DNA from: Terriglobia bacterium | Lineage (GTDB): Bacteria; Acidobacteriota; Terriglobia; JAIQFV01 | Length of the DNA stretch: 64,000 bases | Reading direction: 5' to 3' | Assembly (NCBI GenBank): GCA_020073085.1 | Contig: JAIQFV010000001.1 | Location: 434,001 to 498,000, forward strand | Shown here: positions 14,254 to 20,050 of the stretch, one piece after another | Layout: the number at the start of each line of letters is the position of its first letter | Position numbering within the stretch: position 1 is the first letter of the stretch | Position numbers and translations under genes: made by a program | Notes under the pieces: generated by a model | The model's database searches: none | What the model saw: only the letters and a program-made list of their open reading frames with translations | What the model was told of the DNA's origin: nothing

Positions 14254-15291
14254 ATGAATCCTTGGATTGATTTGAGAAGTGATACGGTCACCCGGCCGAC
14301 CCGCGAGATGCGGGAGGCCATGCTGAACGCCGAAGTGGGCGATGATGTCTACATGGAAGACCCCACGGTGAACCGTCTCCAGGCAAGGGCCGCGGAGATA
14401 TTCGAACGGGAGGCTGCCCTGTTCGTGCCTACAGGAACCATGGGGAACCAGATTGCCGTGAAGATTCACAGCCAACCCGGCAGTGAGGTCATCGTCGAGG
14501 AATCCAGCCACATTTTTAATTATGAGATGGCGACCATGTCCTCTTTCTCGGGTTCACTCGCCCGGCCCATCCACGGTGAGGATGGCGCCATTACCTGGAA
14601 CCAGATCAAAAAACATATCCGCCCGAATATTTATTATGTGGCCCCCACCAGCCTGATCACCCTGGAAAATACACACAACATGGCGGGAGGAACGATTTAT
14701 CCGCAAGCCGAGGCAGAGGACATCTGTGACCATGCCCACGAGGCGCGCCTGCCGGTTCATCTCGATGGGGCGCGAATCTTTAACGCCTCCGTGGCCACTG
14801 GAAAGTCCGTTGCCGACCTCAGCCGGAAATTCGACAGCATCATGTTCTGCCTGTCCAAGGGATTGGGCTCGCCGGTCGGTTCGATGCTGGTGGGCAGCCA
14901 GACCTTCATTGAGAAGGCCCGGGTCTATCGCAAGGCGCTGGGAGGGGGGATGCGACAAGTCGGGGTTCTCGCGGCAGCAGGTCTGATCTCCCTGGAAAAG
15001 CATCCTGCGAAACTTGCTGAAGATCACGCCAATGCCAAACGATTGGCGGCAGCGCTTGCGGCGTTTCCCTGGGTCAAGATCAATCCCGCCAAGGTCCAAA
15101 CCAATATTCTGGTGTTTGATATCTCCTCCACCGGCCTGGACACCTCCGAATTCTCAAGACGACTGAAGGACCAGGGTGTCCTGGCGAATGGCATCAACCC
15201 CACTCACATGCGAATGGTGACACACTACGATGTCTCGAGGGACGACATCGAAAAAACAATTCAGACCGTTGGATCCATACTTGGCCAATAG
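14254..15291 (+). CDS. ltaE: Low-specificity L-threonine aldolase
   Basis: This is a PLP-dependent, fold-type-I enzyme that cleaves L-threonine or allo-threonine to glycine and acetaldehyde. It has 345 residues. It starts with the family motif [16 protein letters not shown] and continues with [15 protein letters not shown]. The PLP lysine is in [16 protein letters not shown], and [12 protein letters not shown] gives the PLP-binding Asp. The length and all core motifs are intact. It stands alone between hemW and the XRE-led operon. Confidence 0.94.
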
Positions 15292-15390
15292 ACGCCGGCG
15301 TGAATTCCCATCGCCCGGATCCTCCTGCCCCACTCCCTCCTGATTCCAGGAAGACCCCGTCCAAACACTGAACGTTCACAAGGTCAGCTG

Positions 15391-15428
15391 AGAAGGCTCG
15401 CCAAGATCAGTCCCCCCGGCCTTCTTTT
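15391..15428 (+). terminator. Possible terminator after the threonine aldolase gene
   Basis: AGAAGGC (15391-15397) and GCCTTCT (15419-15425) can pair across a 21-base loop and are followed by a short T run. The loop is long, so this is tentative. Confidence 0.3.
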
Positions 15429-15457
15429 CACAACGACCTCCCGCCCTCCGATTTTAC

Positions 15458-15510
15458 TTGACAAATAATATAGCTTAATGCTATATATAAATCGCAATTA
15501 GTTATATAAC
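15458..15510 (+). promoter_or_regulatory. Promoter with two palindromic operator candidates for the XRE operon
   Basis: TTGACA (15458-15463) and TATATA (15482-15487) form a promoter with an 18-base spacer. An inverted repeat, ATATAGC-TTAAT-GCTATAT (15468-15474 and 15480-15486), fills the spacer and overlaps the -10 box. A second perfect palindrome, GTTATATAAC (15501-15510), lies 10 bases before the start codon. This AT-rich island in GC-rich DNA is the likely binding region for the XRE protein encoded next. Confidence 0.65.
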
Positions 15511-15520
15511 CAACACTACT

Positions 15521-16003
15521 ATGAAACTGGGAAACAAAATTCGCTATCTGCGGTCGGTTGAGGGGACGCTCCGGGGGCTGGGAAGGCCGATGACCCAGAT
15601 GGAGACGGTGCGGGCCATCAAGAAGCAACAGGGCAGGACGCTTAGCCAGGCCTACCTCTCTCAGATTGAAGGAGGGGTTCGTCCGCATTTGACCAACAAG
15701 ACCCGCATGTTGCTGGCGCAATTCTTCAAGGTTCATCCCGGCTACCTGGTGGATGACCCGGCCGGCTATCACACCGAGCTCACCTCCGACTTGAGAGTCG
15801 AGGAGGATCAGTTGGATCTTTGGCTCATTGATGGGGCGGAGCGGTTTCACGAAGATGGGGATTTGAGCCAGGTGCTGCTCCAAATTGCCCAACGGGATGA
15901 CTCGCGCAGGCTGTTGCTCCTGCTGGGTGCCATCATGGAGACACCCCAACTTCCCGACCGGCTTCTGGAGGTCTTGAAGCCCCGGGCAGAGGGAAAACGA
16001 TAA
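15521..16003 (+). CDS. XRE-family transcriptional regulator of the flotillin/PspA operon
   Basis: This is a 160-residue DNA-binding protein. Residues 3-75 form an XRE-type helix-turn-helix in which MTQMETVRAIKKQQGRTLSQAYLSQIEGGVRPHLTNKTRMLLAQFF carries the recognition helix and the conserved AYLSQIEGG. The C-terminal half has no recognisable ligand domain. It heads an apparent operon with a 24-residue membrane peptide, an NfeD-like protein, a flotillin and PspA, suggesting control of a membrane-stress response. Palindromes in its own promoter suggest autoregulation. The signal it senses is unknown. Confidence 0.85.
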   Translation: MKLGNKIRYLRSVEGTLRGLGRPMTQMETVRAIKKQQGRTLSQAYLSQIEGGVRPHLTNKTRMLLAQFFKVHPGYLVDDPAGYHTELTSDLRVEEDQLDLWLIDGAERFHEDGDLSQVLLQIAQRDDSRRLLLLLGAIMETPQLPDRLLEVLKPRAEGKR

Positions 16004-16031
16004 CCGAAGGATCGGAAGTCAGGGAGGATTT

Positions 16032-16106
16032 ATGCTGCACCGCCTTTGGATTCTTATCCTGGTGATTTTCTATTTGCTTGCCCAGCTGGTCCGGCTGCTG
16101 GCTTGA
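16032..16106 (+). CDS. 24-residue single-pass membrane peptide (small ORF)
   Basis: ATG at 16032 opens a 24-codon frame ending in TGA at 16104. The product is MLHRLWILILVIFYLLAQLV plus four residues, a basic start followed by one continuous hydrophobic helix. AGGGAGG (16021-16027) lies five bases before the ATG, a strong ribosome site that would have no other use here. It sits between the XRE regulator and the NfeD-like gene of a membrane-stress operon, where a small membrane regulator would fit. No homologue is claimed. Confidence 0.5.
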   Translation: MLHRLWILILVIFYLLAQLVRLLA

Positions 16107-16248
16107 TCCGGCGGCCGCATCCCCGGCCCTCGTCGAAGATCGAAAGGATGGATCTGCATGGTCCGGACGAACAGAGGATGCAGGCCGAGGAAACGCGGTC
16201 TGGAGGGAACGAGAGGAAAATTCTTTCTCTCATGATGGGGGGATTTTC

Positions 16249-16839
16249 ATGACAACGTTTTATCTGATTTGTTTTGTGGTGGGATTTGCGCTGACGATTG
16301 TCTCGCTGGTGATGGGCCACCTGAACCTTCACCTGCATCTCCATTCTTTCGATGCCTCGGCCCACGGGCTGAATCATGGCCTGGGTCATTTGCATCACGG
16401 GTTGTCCACGGGGGGCGAATTTGATATCTCGCCGGTCAATTTTTCAACCGTCATGGCCTTTCTGACCTGGTTTGGCGGGATGGGATACCTGCTGAGTCAC
16501 TATTACCGCTTCTGGCTCCTGTTGGGACTCACGGTCGCGACGCTCAGCGGGCTGGCGGGAGGGGCGGTGGTGTTTGTGTTTATGGCGAAATTTCTGGCGC
16601 CTCGTCAGACTCAACTCGATCCGGCTGACTTTGACTTGATCGGCACCCTTGCCCGGATCTCGAGCCCCATCCGTCCCCAGGGTACGGGAGAGATTATTTT
16701 TTCGCAGGCAGGGGCGCGGAAGACCTCCGGGGCTCGAAGCGTGGACGGGACCGGCCTCGAGAAAGGCACGGAGGTGGTGATCACCCGGTACGAAAAAGGG
16801 ATCGCCTATGTTCAGCGCTGGGAGGAGTTCACGAAGTGA
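16249..16839 (+). CDS. NfeD-like membrane protein with histidine-rich loop
   Basis: This is a 196-residue protein of the NfeD-like (YuaF) type, which partners with flotillins in membrane microdomains. Segment one (residues 5-25) is followed by a striking loop (about 26-52) with nine histidines in HLNLHLHLHSF, GLNHGL and GHLHHG. Two more membrane segments (about 63-85 and 88-110) follow, and then a C-terminal OB-fold (residues 125-195, LIGTLARISSPIRPQGTGEI to AYVQRWEEF). The start at 16249 has a GGGGGGA ribosome site; a longer in-frame extension upstream is not family-like. The flotillin gene follows. The His-rich loop might bind a metal; that is inference. Confidence 0.82.
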   Translation: MTTFYLICFVVGFALTIVSLVMGHLNLHLHLHSFDASAHGLNHGLGHLHHGLSTGGEFDISPVNFSTVMAFLTWFGGMGYLLSHYYRFWLLLGLTVATLSGLAGGAVVFVFMAKFLAPRQTQLDPADFDLIGTLARISSPIRPQGTGEIIFSQAGARKTSGARSVDGTGLEKGTEVVITRYEKGIAYVQRWEEFTK

Positions 16840-17011
16840 AAGGAGGCCAAAGGCAACGACGCGGCTCCCTGAGGCTCAGGCCGGGAGAGGCGGCGGGGGT
16901 TGAAGTCAAAGGATGTTTCCGGGCGTCCCGGCGGGCGGTTCAGCGCGGCGGGGGGCCGACCGTGAAACATGAATCTCAACGGTTCTCAAAAAGTCCAAAG
17001 GAGGAAAGTTT

Positions 17012-18433
17012 ATGGACGGCTCAGTAGGGATGTGGGTCATGGTGGGGATGATGATCATGGGTCTGGTCATCCTCATGGGACTCCTGGCATCCATGTTTCG
17101 AAAGGTAGGACCCAACCAAGCGCTCATCGTCTATGGCTTTCGGGGAACGAGGATCGTGCAGGGCGGCGGCACCATCATCTTCCCGATGGTGGAGAATTGC
17201 CGGGATCTTTCGCTGGAGCTGATGTCCTTCGACGTGGCGCCGCAGCAGGACCTTTATACGAGGCAGGGGGTGGCGGTGACCGTCGAAGCGGTGGCGCAGA
17301 TCAAGGTCAAATCCGACCCCGAATCCGTGCGCACGGCAGCCGAACAATTTCTGACGAAAACCCCCACCGAGCGAGAGAGCCTTATTCGGCTCGTCATGGA
17401 AGGCCATCTGCGGGGCATCATCGGCCAGCTTACCGTTGAGGAAATCGTCAAGCAACCCGAGATGGTGGCCGACCGCATGCGATCCACGTGCGCGGACGAC
17501 ATGAACAAAATGGGATTGGAAGTCATCTCCTTCACGATCAAGGAAGTGCGCGACAAGAACGAGTACATCGCCAACATGGGAAAGCCGGATGTGGCGCGGA
17601 TTCGCCGGGATGCGGACGTGGCCGCTGCAGAGGCCGATCGCGACACCACCATCCGGCGGGCCCTGGCACAAAGGGAAGCGGCCATTGCGCGCGCCCAGGC
17701 CGACCAGGAACGGGTGCTGGCGGAGACCCTATCGCTCGCCAAACAGGCTGAAGCTCAGCGCGATCTCGAGGTGAAGAAGGCCTCGTATCTGGAATCGGTC
17801 AAGAAACAGCAGGCGCAGGCGGACAAGGCGTACGAGATTCAAACCAACGTCATGCAACAACAGGTGACGACCGAGTCGGTCAAGATTCAACAGGTGGAAA
17901 AAGAACAACAGATCAAGGTCCAGGAAGCCGAAATCCTGCGCATGGAGAAGCAACTGATCGCCACGGTACTGAAGCAGGCGGAAGTCGATCGTCAACGCAT
18001 CGAGACCCTCGCGGCCGCGGAAAGGCAGAAGCTTATTTCCGAAGCCGATGGTCATGCCAATGCCATCCGGGCCCAGGGTGAAGCCGAGGCCGACATCATT
18101 TTCAAGAAGGGCGAAGCCGAGGCAAAGGCCATGAACGTCAAGGCCGAGGCGTTCCAGGAGTATAACCAGGCCGCGGTGTTCGACAAATTGCTGACAGGCC
18201 TGCCGGATGTCGTCCGGGCGCTGGCAGAGCCGCTCTCCAAGGTTGACAGGATCACCATCGTCTCGACCGGTAATGGCGACACGGCAGGAATCAATAAGGT
18301 AACCGGCGACATGACAAAAATGGTCGCCCAGGTGCCTGCCCTCTTTGAAACCCTCACGGGGATGAAGCTCTCTGAATTGATGTCGAAGGTACGCACGATT
18401 GGCGAGAAGAGCGAAAAGCCCGAGCGCTCCTGA
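17012..18433 (+). CDS. Flotillin-family SPFH protein
   Basis: This is a 473-residue membrane scaffold protein of the flotillin (FloT/YuaG) family. It has a short N-terminal membrane segment (residues 6-28), an SPFH domain (about 30-200, starting VGPNQALIVYGFRGTRIVQGG), and then a long Ala/Glu/Lys-rich coiled coil (about 200-390) with the flotillin EA-type repeats and AEADIIFKKGEAEAKAMN. The C-terminus (GLPDVVRALAEPLSKVDRITIVSTG) is the conserved flotillin oligomerisation region. GGAGG precedes the ATG. It lies between NfeD-like and PspA genes, which supports a role in organising stressed inner membrane. Confidence 0.93.
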   Translation: MDGSVGMWVMVGMMIMGLVILMGLLASMFRKVGPNQALIVYGFRGTRIVQGGGTIIFPMVENCRDLSLELMSFDVAPQQDLYTRQGVAVTVEAVAQIKVKSDPESVRTAAEQFLTKTPTERESLIRLVMEGHLRGIIGQLTVEEIVKQPEMVADRMRSTCADDMNKMGLEVISFTIKEVRDKNEYIANMGKPDVARIRRDADVAAAEADRDTTIRRALAQREAAIARAQADQERVLAETLSLAKQAEAQRDLEVKKASYLESVKKQQAQADKAYEIQTNVMQQQVTTESVKIQQVEKEQQIKVQEAEILRMEKQLIATVLKQAEVDRQRIETLAAAERQKLISEADGHANAIRAQGEAEADIIFKKGEAEAKAMNVKAEAFQEYNQAAVFDKLLTGLPDVVRALAEPLSKVDRITIVSTGNGDTAGINKVTGDMTKMVAQVPALFETLTGMKLSELMSKVRTIGEKSEKPERS

Positions 18434-18600
18434 ATTGTGCTAAAGGGAGCTTGAGATTTGGAACTCAGCATTTCGGATGGATGGAGGCAGACCGGCGGAA
18501 GAAGGATCTTTAAGAAGAGCCGATCTGCTTCCCTCCCGTCCGAGGCGGGACCGAGGCAGGATTTGGATTCTTTAGTTTTGACGAAGAAAGGAGCAAGACC

Positions 18601-19269
18601 ATGGCATTACTGGACCGTGTTTCAACATTGATTCGTGCGAATCTGAACGACCTGATTGACAAGGCCGAAGATCCCGAAAAGATGATCAAGCAAGTGATCC
18701 TCGACATGCAAAACCAACTGATCCAGGTGAAGACGCAGGTGGCCGTGTCTATCGCTGATCTGCACCTGCTCGAGAAGAAGCAGCTCGAGCACGAGGAGAA
18801 AATCGGGGAGTGGATGCGCAAGGCCGAGCTGGCTGTGGACAAGAATCAAGACGACCTGGCGCGGGCGGCGCTCGCCCGGCACCAAAGCTTTCAGGAATTA
18901 TCCGAGAGCTTCAAGCTGCAGGTGGCGAACCAGAAAAGTCAGGTGGAAAACCTCAAGAGCGCCTTCCACAAGCTGGAGCAGAAGCTTTCCGAGGCGGAAT
19001 CAAAGAAAGATCTCCTGATCGCGCGTCATCGTCGCGCTCGGGCGGCCTCCAAGGCCATGGATGCTCAGGCGTCGATGGGAGACCAGTCCAAAGGGGCCAC
19101 CTTTGAACGGATGAAGGACAAGGTGGCCCATGGCGAGGCGGTCAGCGAGGCGAAGGCGGAACTGCTCGGAGATAACATCGACGATCAGTTTGCCAAATTG
19201 GAGAAGGAGAACGAGATTGAGCGTCTGCTGCAGGACCTCAAGGATCGCCGCAAACTCAAGACCGCTTAA
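18601..19269 (+). CDS. pspA: PspA/IM30-family membrane stress protein
   Basis: This is a 222-residue phage-shock-protein A homologue, predicted to be almost wholly coiled coil. MALLDRVSTLIRANLNDLIDKAEDPEKMIKQ contains the amphipathic first helix and the conserved DPEKM. Helices run to about residue 180, and ERLLQDLKDRRKL ends the protein. PspA proteins coat and stabilise damaged inner membrane and can regulate their own operon. It is the last gene of the XRE-led group, 167 bases after the flotillin. GAAAGGAGC precedes the start. Confidence 0.93.
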   Translation: MALLDRVSTLIRANLNDLIDKAEDPEKMIKQVILDMQNQLIQVKTQVAVSIADLHLLEKKQLEHEEKIGEWMRKAELAVDKNQDDLARAALARHQSFQELSESFKLQVANQKSQVENLKSAFHKLEQKLSEAESKKDLLIARHRRARAASKAMDAQASMGDQSKGATFERMKDKVAHGEAVSEAKAELLGDNIDDQFAKLEKENEIERLLQDLKDRRKLKTA

Positions 19270-19324
19270 GCCAATCTTGGGCCGGCATTCATTGGGGTAG
19301 GTTCAGGGGAAGATCTGAGGCCGC

Positions 19325-20050
19325 TCACTTGGGAGGGGGTCCATCGACGGCATCTTCGCCGTTGACGACCGGGACCCTGACACATTCAGGAATGAATTTT
19401 TCCTTGATGGCCGTGAGGACTTCTCCCGGGGTGTCCACAACCTTGAAGAGTTCAAGGTCATGGGGCGAGATTTTCCCCTCGGCGACCATGGTGCTTCGCA
19501 GCCACTCCATGAGTCCTTTCCAATAGACGCGCCCTACCAGGATGACCGGGAATGGTTTAATCTTCTTCGTCTGGATCAAAGTGAGGGATTCAAACAGCTC
19601 ATCCATGGTTCCGAACCCGCCCGGAAGGATCACGAAGGCCTGGGAGTATTTCACGAACATCACCTTGCGGACGAAGAAGTAACGGAAATTCAGCAACGTG
19701 GTGATAAAGAAATTCGATTTCTGCTCGAACGGCAGCTCAATGTTCAATCCGATCGACTCCCCTTTCGCCTCGAAGGCGCCGCGGTTTGCTCCCTCCATGA
19801 CCCCGGGCCCCCCGCCTGTAATCACCGCGTACCCGTTCTGGGCCAGCAGGGAGGCGATGGCGCGTGCGGTCTCGTACTCATGCGACCCGGGCTTCGCTCG
19901 CGCGGATCCAAACATCGTGACCGCCTGGCTGACCTGCGCCAGGGTTTCAAACCCTTCAACGAATTCAGCCATGATGCGGAACAGCCGCCAGGATTCCTTG
20001 GGCGCAAAATCGTCAATCAGATACTGCCTTTCGAGAATTTTCTTGGTCAT
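19325..20050 (-). CDS. LOG-family protein (nucleoside 5'-monophosphate phosphoribohydrolase type)
   Basis: This is a 241-residue protein of the LOG/TIGR00730 group, which releases the base from (often cytokinin-type) nucleoside monophosphates. The two hallmark motifs are clear: GGGPGVMEGANRGAFEAKG and PGGFGTMDELFESLTLIQT. ITGGGPGVM together with a TMFGSARAKPGSHEY strand indicates the Rossmann-like fold. It is transcribed alone, pointing away from lpxC. LOG proteins are often mis-annotated as lysine decarboxylases; nothing here supports that activity. Confidence 0.9.
   Translation of the reverse strand: MTKKILERQYLIDDFAPKESWRLFRIMAEFVEGFETLAQVSQAVTMFGSARAKPGSHEYETARAIASLLAQNGYAVITGGGPGVMEGANRGAFEAKGESIGLNIELPFEQKSNFFITTLLNFRYFFVRKVMFVKYSQAFVILPGGFGTMDELFESLTLIQTKKIKPFPVILVGRVYWKGLMEWLRSTMVAEGKISPHDLELFKVVDTPGEVLTAIKEKFIPECVRVPVVNGEDAVDGPPPK

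What the first reader, a model, noticed from the sequence alone, without database searches (positions are those of the whole stretch)
16032..16106. Unannotated 24-residue membrane peptide
A strong ribosome site precedes a short frame that encodes one hydrophobic helix, inside a membrane-stress operon. Such peptides are usually missed and often regulate a membrane partner.
Basis: seen in the sequence. Interest (0 to 1): 0.5.

Follow-up and report, generated by a model that had tools for sequence, protein, structure and literature searches.

The report
Conserved tiny membrane protein, flotillin operon
A 24-amino-acid membrane-spanning protein, too short for ordinary gene finding, looks like a real conserved gene inside a bacterial membrane-stress operon, and relatives seem to carry different tiny membrane proteins at other places in the same operon.

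Summary
Window 16032-16106 (+) encodes MLHRLWILILVIFYLLAQLVRLLA* behind a GGAGG site, inside an EspR-like HTH - [24-mer] - NfeD2/YuaF-like - flotillin - PspA gene row of a Terriglobia (Acidobacteriota) genome. The frame is intact, gapless and hydrophobic in 3 of 3 held genomes of the order (92% and 58% identity), dN/dS about 0.26 (24 codons only). A comparable frame arose in 1 of 20,000 shuffles of the gap.

It is lineage-specific. The four large genes occur together in 111 of 114 operons read; the 24-mer was found only in those three. No Pfam or NCBIfam model matches it. Other lineages hold other small hydrophobic ORFs in the same operon, at other positions: on the recount 46 sense in all, against 3 antisense and a shuffle mean of 3.1.

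New member of a known kind (small membrane proteins encoded beside larger ones); the repeated pattern across lineages is the more interesting part.

The parts
15458..15487 (+). promoter-like TTGACA (15458-15463) and TATATA (15482-15487), 18-nt spacer, upstream of the regulator
   Evidence: read from the sequence; the consensus scan does not list it, since it demands T at the last position of the second hexamer; a TTGA[CT]N hexamer lies within 120 nt upstream of the regulator in 93 of 114 operons, with no background counted for it
15468..15486 (.). perfect inverted repeat ATATAGC-TTAAT-GCTATAT overlapping the promoter: probable operator of the HTH protein (inferred)
   Evidence: same arms in the same-genus genome; operator-like patterns, chosen after looking at these sequences, upstream of the regulator in 88 of 114 operons against 34 of 2280 random 120-nt pieces of the loci
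15521..16003 (+). HTH regulator, EspR-like, 160 aa
   Evidence: profile match to EspR, E 2e-7; HTH_3 in 31 of 32 homologs at E up to 0.1, no Pfam match for the window's own protein; Foldseek best hit EspR 3r1f, E 3.5e-4; present in 130 of 399 class genomes
16023..16027 (+). Shine-Dalgarno GGAGG, 4 nt before the start codon
   Evidence: same site in G001 and a purine-rich site in G002
16032..16106 (+). 24-residue single-helix microprotein (the finding)
16249..16839 (+). NfeD2/YuaF/YqiJ-like membrane protein with His-rich loop and OB barrel, 196 aa
   Evidence: profile match to YuaF 2k14, E 4.1e-6; model with three long helices and an OB barrel of block pLDDT above 90; Foldseek 2k14 E 1.3e-6, QmcA-YbbJ complex 8z5g E 1.6e-4
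17012..18433 (+). flotillin, 473 aa
   Evidence: Pfam Band_7 and Flot
18601..19269 (+). PspA/IM30, 222 aa
   Evidence: Pfam PspA_IM30 7.8e-41

Best explanation
The frame is a real, translated gene (my probability about 0.93). It is probably co-transcribed with the NfeD2-like protein, flotillin and PspA from a promoter that the EspR-like HTH protein of the same operon controls. The product is a single hydrophobic helix. A chain of 24 residues would be finished while still inside the ribosome (recalled: the exit tunnel holds some 30-40 residues), so it should insert after release, as reported for the 27-residue YohP. In the inner membrane it most likely packs against the three-helix NfeD2-like protein (the next gene) or the membrane anchor of flotillin, and tunes assembly or stability of the NfeD2-flotillin-PspA platform: a small accessory subunit. 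Shown by sequence: frame, ribosome site, conservation, gene row. Inferred: co-transcription, translation, insertion, partner, effect. The confidence given is for the accessory-subunit function.
For: Intact, gapless frame in 3 of 3 order genomes, with start, length and stop position kept. dN/dS 0.26; only 1 of 21 window-to-G002 differences falls on a second codon position, so hydrophobicity is kept. A neutral simulation keeps frame, identity and hydrophobicity in 0.05% of runs. The following spacer decays faster: window to G002, 70 matches over a 161-column gapped alignment, against 54 of 75 without gaps in the ORF; window to G001, 99 matches over 143 columns against 67 of 75. Other small hydrophobic ORFs recur in the same operon: 46 sense, 3 antisense, shuffle mean 3.1 sd 1.3; 10.5 per 10 kb of gap, against 1.55 in ordinary co-directional gaps of the window's genome. 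YohP, a 27-residue single-helix protein, inserts after translation (PMC12719787, passages). In B. subtilis the membrane proteins YdjG and YdjH are needed to bring an SPFH protein and PspA to the membrane (PMC8581546, passages).
Against: Three genomes and 24 codons make the dN/dS a small sample. No expression data. Not found in the other 111 operons read, and no small hydrophobic ORF at all passed the scan in 72 of 114, including 23 of 23 of family f5, so the platform can do without one in the operon. Nothing in the sequence points to a particular partner. The ribosome-site spacer is short.
Confidence: 0.5

Rival explanations
1. Free membrane-active stress peptide, YohP-like or of the type I toxin kind: the helix acts on the lipid bilayer (rigidity, proton leak) rather than on a partner, and so feeds or damps the PspA response.
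For: Almost no residues outside the predicted helix. YohP (27 aa), when produced early in E. coli, stiffens the membrane, lowers the proton motive force and raises PspA and PspC (PMC12719787, passages).
Against: Kept at one place in a gene row with a ribosome site of its own, single copy. No Rfam match in 15200-19400, though Rfam does not cover all antitoxin RNAs.
Confidence: 0.2
2. Leader or coupling ORF: the act of translating it, not its product, sets expression of the NfeD2-like gene or protects the mRNA.
For: It lies in a 245-nt gap between the regulator and the next gene. A terminator-like hairpin is listed at 16225-16243, just before that gene, and a three-sequence consensus fold of the spacer has 6 of 22 pairs with both sides changed in some sequence.
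Against: Residue character is conserved, which a pure leader does not need. The gap RNA folds no better than shuffles (z 0.36); terminator-like sites are at chance level (4 found, 3.9 expected); the consensus fold is weak (-7.34 kcal/mol); no Rfam family. The next start codon is 142 nt away.
Confidence: 0.1
3. Chance or decaying ORF with no product.
For: Found in one order only (3 strong matches in 399 class genomes).
Against: 1 of 20,000 shuffles; signs of purifying selection; ribosome site retained.
Confidence: 0.05

Closest known systems
Small single-helix proteins encoded beside or acting on a membrane partner (KdpF, CydX, AcrZ, MgrB; names recalled, no call)
   Same: Length class, single helix, in KdpF and CydX also the operon of the partner (recalled).
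   Different: No sequence comparison with them was made; another operon and phylum; no partner shown here.
YohP of E. coli, 27 aa (PMC12719787, passages)
   Same: Size, single helix, link to the Psp response.
   Different: Here the peptide is encoded within the PspA operon itself; YohP as I recall is not. No sequence comparison made.
Acidobacteriota PspA - Band7/Flot - NfeD - HTH network (PMC9239133, passages and section 11) and PspA operons with flotillin and YqiJ/YuaF-type proteins (PMC11237479, passages)
   Same: The same large-gene set is already described there.
   Different: A small membrane ORF is not mentioned in what I read; the terms 'small protein' and 'small membrane' occur 0 times in the main texts. 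Supplements were not read.
pspA-ydjGHI of B. subtilis (PMC8581546, passages)
   Same: Membrane proteins encoded with an SPFH protein and PspA.
   Different: YdjG and YdjH were not compared in sequence; the 24-mer has almost nothing outside the helix with which to act as such an anchor.

Membership tests
small operon-encoded single-helix membrane protein (functional class) | ORF under 50 codons with its own ribosome site | tested here: met
   24 codons, GGAGG with 4-nt spacer
small operon-encoded single-helix membrane protein (functional class) | one hydrophobic helix-length stretch | tested here: met
   KD17 2.58, 2.72, 2.89 in the three genomes; no dedicated TM predictor was run
small operon-encoded single-helix membrane protein (functional class) | amino-acid-level conservation | tested here: met
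   3 of 3 order genomes, dN/dS 0.26, small sample
small operon-encoded single-helix membrane protein (functional class) | translated and located in the membrane | not testable with these tools
   needs profiling, a tag or fractionation
small operon-encoded single-helix membrane protein (functional class) | binds or regulates a membrane partner | not testable with these tools
   only single-chain structure prediction is offered; inferred from gene order
any named Pfam or NCBIfam family (for the 24-mer) | profile match | tested here: not met
   0 families in Pfam at E up to 0.1 (window) and 0.5 (G002 version), 0 in NCBIfam at E up to 0.5
type I toxin peptide | antisense RNA antitoxin | tested here: inconclusive
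   no Rfam match; unlisted RNAs cannot be excluded
NfeD2/YuaF (product of the next gene) | membrane helices plus cytosolic OB barrel, gene beside a flotillin gene | tested here: met
   Pfam NfeD weakly in 18 of 39 homologs (best E 0.00052), not in the window's own protein
EspR-like regulator (product of the first gene) | EspR-type HTH domain | tested here: met
   HTH domain only; over the full length the Foldseek superposition is poor (rmsd 12.6 for 3r1f_A)

The most novel reading that the evidence does not exclude
The NfeD2-flotillin-PspA platform of Terriglobia has a place for a small membrane-spanning subunit that different lineages fill with unrelated microproteins: a 24-mer after the regulator (the window's order), a 36-mer-type or a 33-mer protein between the NfeD2-like and flotillin genes, a glycine-rich protein with two hydrophobic stretches between flotillin and PspA. 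The small subunit would be a fast-changing tuner of an otherwise fixed machine.
Probability: 0.4. Interest if true: 0.65.

Novelty: new member of a known kind. Interest (0 to 1): 0.45.

Why it matters
Flotillin-NfeD and PspA systems are described through their large parts. If small membrane proteins are regular, replaceable parts of these platforms, the inventories of the Psp and flotillin networks miss a component that gene finders tend to hide. The candidates gathered here can be tested; one, of the 36-mer type, lies in a named strain, Occallatibacter savannae AB23 (L022).

Tried and rejected
Wider homologs of the 24-mer: a profile search found 3 strong matches in 399 class genomes (next best E 0.0115; 28 of 399 at E up to 1) and, in 396 phylum genomes, G000 plus two at 0.0154 and 0.0277. 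The weak ones cover part of the profile; I did not inspect them. More members of the order: only 3 genomes are held. Homology of the 24-mer to the other small proteins: shuffles scoring as well, of 2000: 598 for the 33-mer, 107 for a 36-mer, 614, 707 and 1592 for three others; none convincing. RNA leader, Rfam, terminators: nothing above chance. Literature: eight searches listed no paper that I could see reports a small membrane protein in this operon; I saw listings and passages (and one section) only, and the library lacks most subscription papers and preprints.

Limits of the counts: 16 of the 130 regulator-bearing genomes were not fetched (truncated regulator matches, matches near contig ends, or simply left out). 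The scan lists 47 candidates in 42 genomes; the recount, confined to gaps of 60 nt or more, gives 46. The 114 operons are related, not independent; by hand tally the 42 genomes fall in 17 of 45 genera. The control counts ORFs of 15-70 codons, those of 15-100, and its gene caller was crude. The glycine-rich group (20 rows, 17 genomes, median dN/dS 0.52 on 145 of 190 pairs) was chosen by eye and holds a row that does not belong (one of the two G385 rows) and second copies from the same genomes. One search read loci lying on the minus strand in the wrong direction; one search put that right.

Full report
What is there. Window 16032-16106 on the + strand reads MLHRLWILILVIFYLLAQLVRLLA*. GGAGG lies 4 nt before the ATG. 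The ORF starts 28 nt after the stop of a 160-residue regulator and ends 142 nt before the next gene. Downstream are an NfeD2/YuaF-like membrane protein, a flotillin and PspA. The genome is a Terriglobia member: the same-genus genome G001 holds the match on a contig of 323,853 bases, the length and place of a contig named Terriglobia bacterium SRVP_39 in genome contigs.

The neighbours. The regulator matches EspR by profile (E 2e-7) and by fold (E 3.5e-4); 31 of 32 homologs match HTH_3 at E up to 0.1, the window's own protein none. Upstream of it are a promoter-like pair and an inverted repeat, ATATAGC-TTAAT-GCTATAT. Operator-like patterns, which I wrote after looking at these sequences, occur upstream in 88 of 114 operons against 34 of 2280 random pieces, so autoregulation is likely but inferred. 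The NfeD2-like protein matches YuaF by profile (E 4.1e-6) and fold (E 1.3e-6). Its model has three long helices and a confident OB barrel, with a low-confidence loop and pTM 0.48. Alone it has no Pfam match; 18 of 39 homologs match NfeD weakly.

Is the ORF real? Three genomes of the order are held and all three have it: G001 at 92% and G002 at 58% identity, same length, no gaps, ribosome site kept. Between window and G002 the 21 nucleotide differences fall 8, 1 and 12 on codon positions 1, 2 and 3. Median dN/dS is 0.26 over three pairs. A neutral simulation with 21 substitutions and no indels keeps the frame in 8.9% of runs, and frame, identity and hydrophobicity together in 0.05%. Shuffles of the gap give a comparable ORF in 1 of 20,000. 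Of 95 co-directional gaps in 304 kb of the same genome, none reaches that threshold and 3 reach the loose one (crude gene calls, own gap not included). I take the ORF as a gene with probability about 0.93.

Where else? A profile of the three finds 3 strong matches in 399 class genomes, the same three, and G000 alone as a strong match in 396 phylum genomes. The regulator is in 130 of 399 class genomes. I read 114 of those 130 operons (window, L015, 12 regions, 100 regions). All four large genes are present in the same order in 111 of 114; two lack PspA in the stretch held, one lacks a detectable NfeD2-like gene. Outside the window's order the regulator and the NfeD2-like gene are 20 nt or less apart in 75 of 110 operons, 21-121 nt in 32 and more in 3, against 234-245 nt in the order.

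An unexpected pattern. Scanning the gaps of the 114 operons for ORFs with a ribosome site and a hydrophobic stretch gave 47 candidates in 42 genomes: 3 of 3 genomes of f1, 28 of 60 of f9, 9 of 20 of f6, 2 of 4 of f4, and none of the 23 of f5, 3 of f3 and 1 of f15. Recounted on gaps of 60 nt or more, sense gives 46, antisense 3, shuffles a mean of 3.1 (sd 1.3); with KD 2.0 and SD 5 the counts are 28, 2 and 0.2. Groups seen: the 24-mer (3 genomes); a 35-48-residue protein of '36-mer' type between the NfeD2-like and flotillin genes in 6 genomes of one genus (median dN/dS 0.24); a 33-residue one at the same place in 2 genomes of another genus (0.33); a glycine-rich 49-75-residue protein between flotillin and PspA in several f9 genera (0.52, a looser set); and others in f6 and f9. 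The 24-mer shows no convincing similarity to the five tested. Either unrelated small membrane proteins joined this operon several times, or they have diverged beyond recognition.

How it most likely works. The product is almost all hydrophobic helix, with no room for catalysis, and is encoded within the platform's gene row. The simplest role is packing against a membrane partner. The NfeD2-like protein is the next gene and has three helices; flotillin is the second choice. In S. aureus NfeD binds flotillin and stabilises its oligomers (PMC11222466, passages). In B. subtilis, YdjG and YdjH are required for membrane recruitment of PspA and its SPFH partner (PMC8581546, passages). The main rival is direct action on the bilayer, as reported for YohP when produced in E. 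coli, with rise of PspA and PspC (PMC12719787, passages). A leader role is less likely: residue character rather than just the frame is conserved, and the RNA shows no unusual fold (z 0.36), though a terminator-like hairpin, of a kind found here at chance frequency, lies at 16225-16243.

Known and new. The large-gene operon is in print: Acidobacteriota PspA with Band7/Flot, NfeD and HTH (PMC9239133, passages and section 11), PspA with flotillin and YqiJ/YuaF-type proteins (PMC11237479, passages), and the NfeD-SPFH operon logic (PMC2636767, passages). In what I read there is no mention of a small membrane ORF in it, and eight searches (listed under Tried and rejected) showed none; the library is limited. 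I file the 24-mer as a new member of a known kind.

Noticed in passing
16178-16252 (+): A second 24-residue frame, MQAEETRSGGNERKILSLMMGGFS*, ends in ATGA overlap with the start of the NfeD2-like gene; in the same-genus genome it aligns without gaps (L015 4656-4730, 18 of 24 identical), but it is absent from the G002 gap.
   Followed up: partly
L021 from 5298, L022 from 5291 (L152): Single-helix ORF of the 36-mer type with a ribosome site between the NfeD2-like and flotillin genes; in 6 genomes of one genus in the set of 114.
   Followed up: partly
L016 from 7217, L018 from 6740; flotillin-PspA gaps of several f9 loci: Glycine-rich small protein with two hydrophobic stretches between flotillin and PspA; no Pfam match at cut-off for the one tested.
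   Followed up: partly
L054 (G013): No detectable NfeD2-like gene, and only residues 316-471 of flotillin match; a different ORF of 144 aa follows the regulator.
   Followed up: no
15468-15486, and upstream of the regulator in other operons: Inverted repeats of ATTGC/GCAAT or ATAGC/GCTAT type near a TTGAC hexamer: a probable operator of this regulator family.
   Followed up: partly
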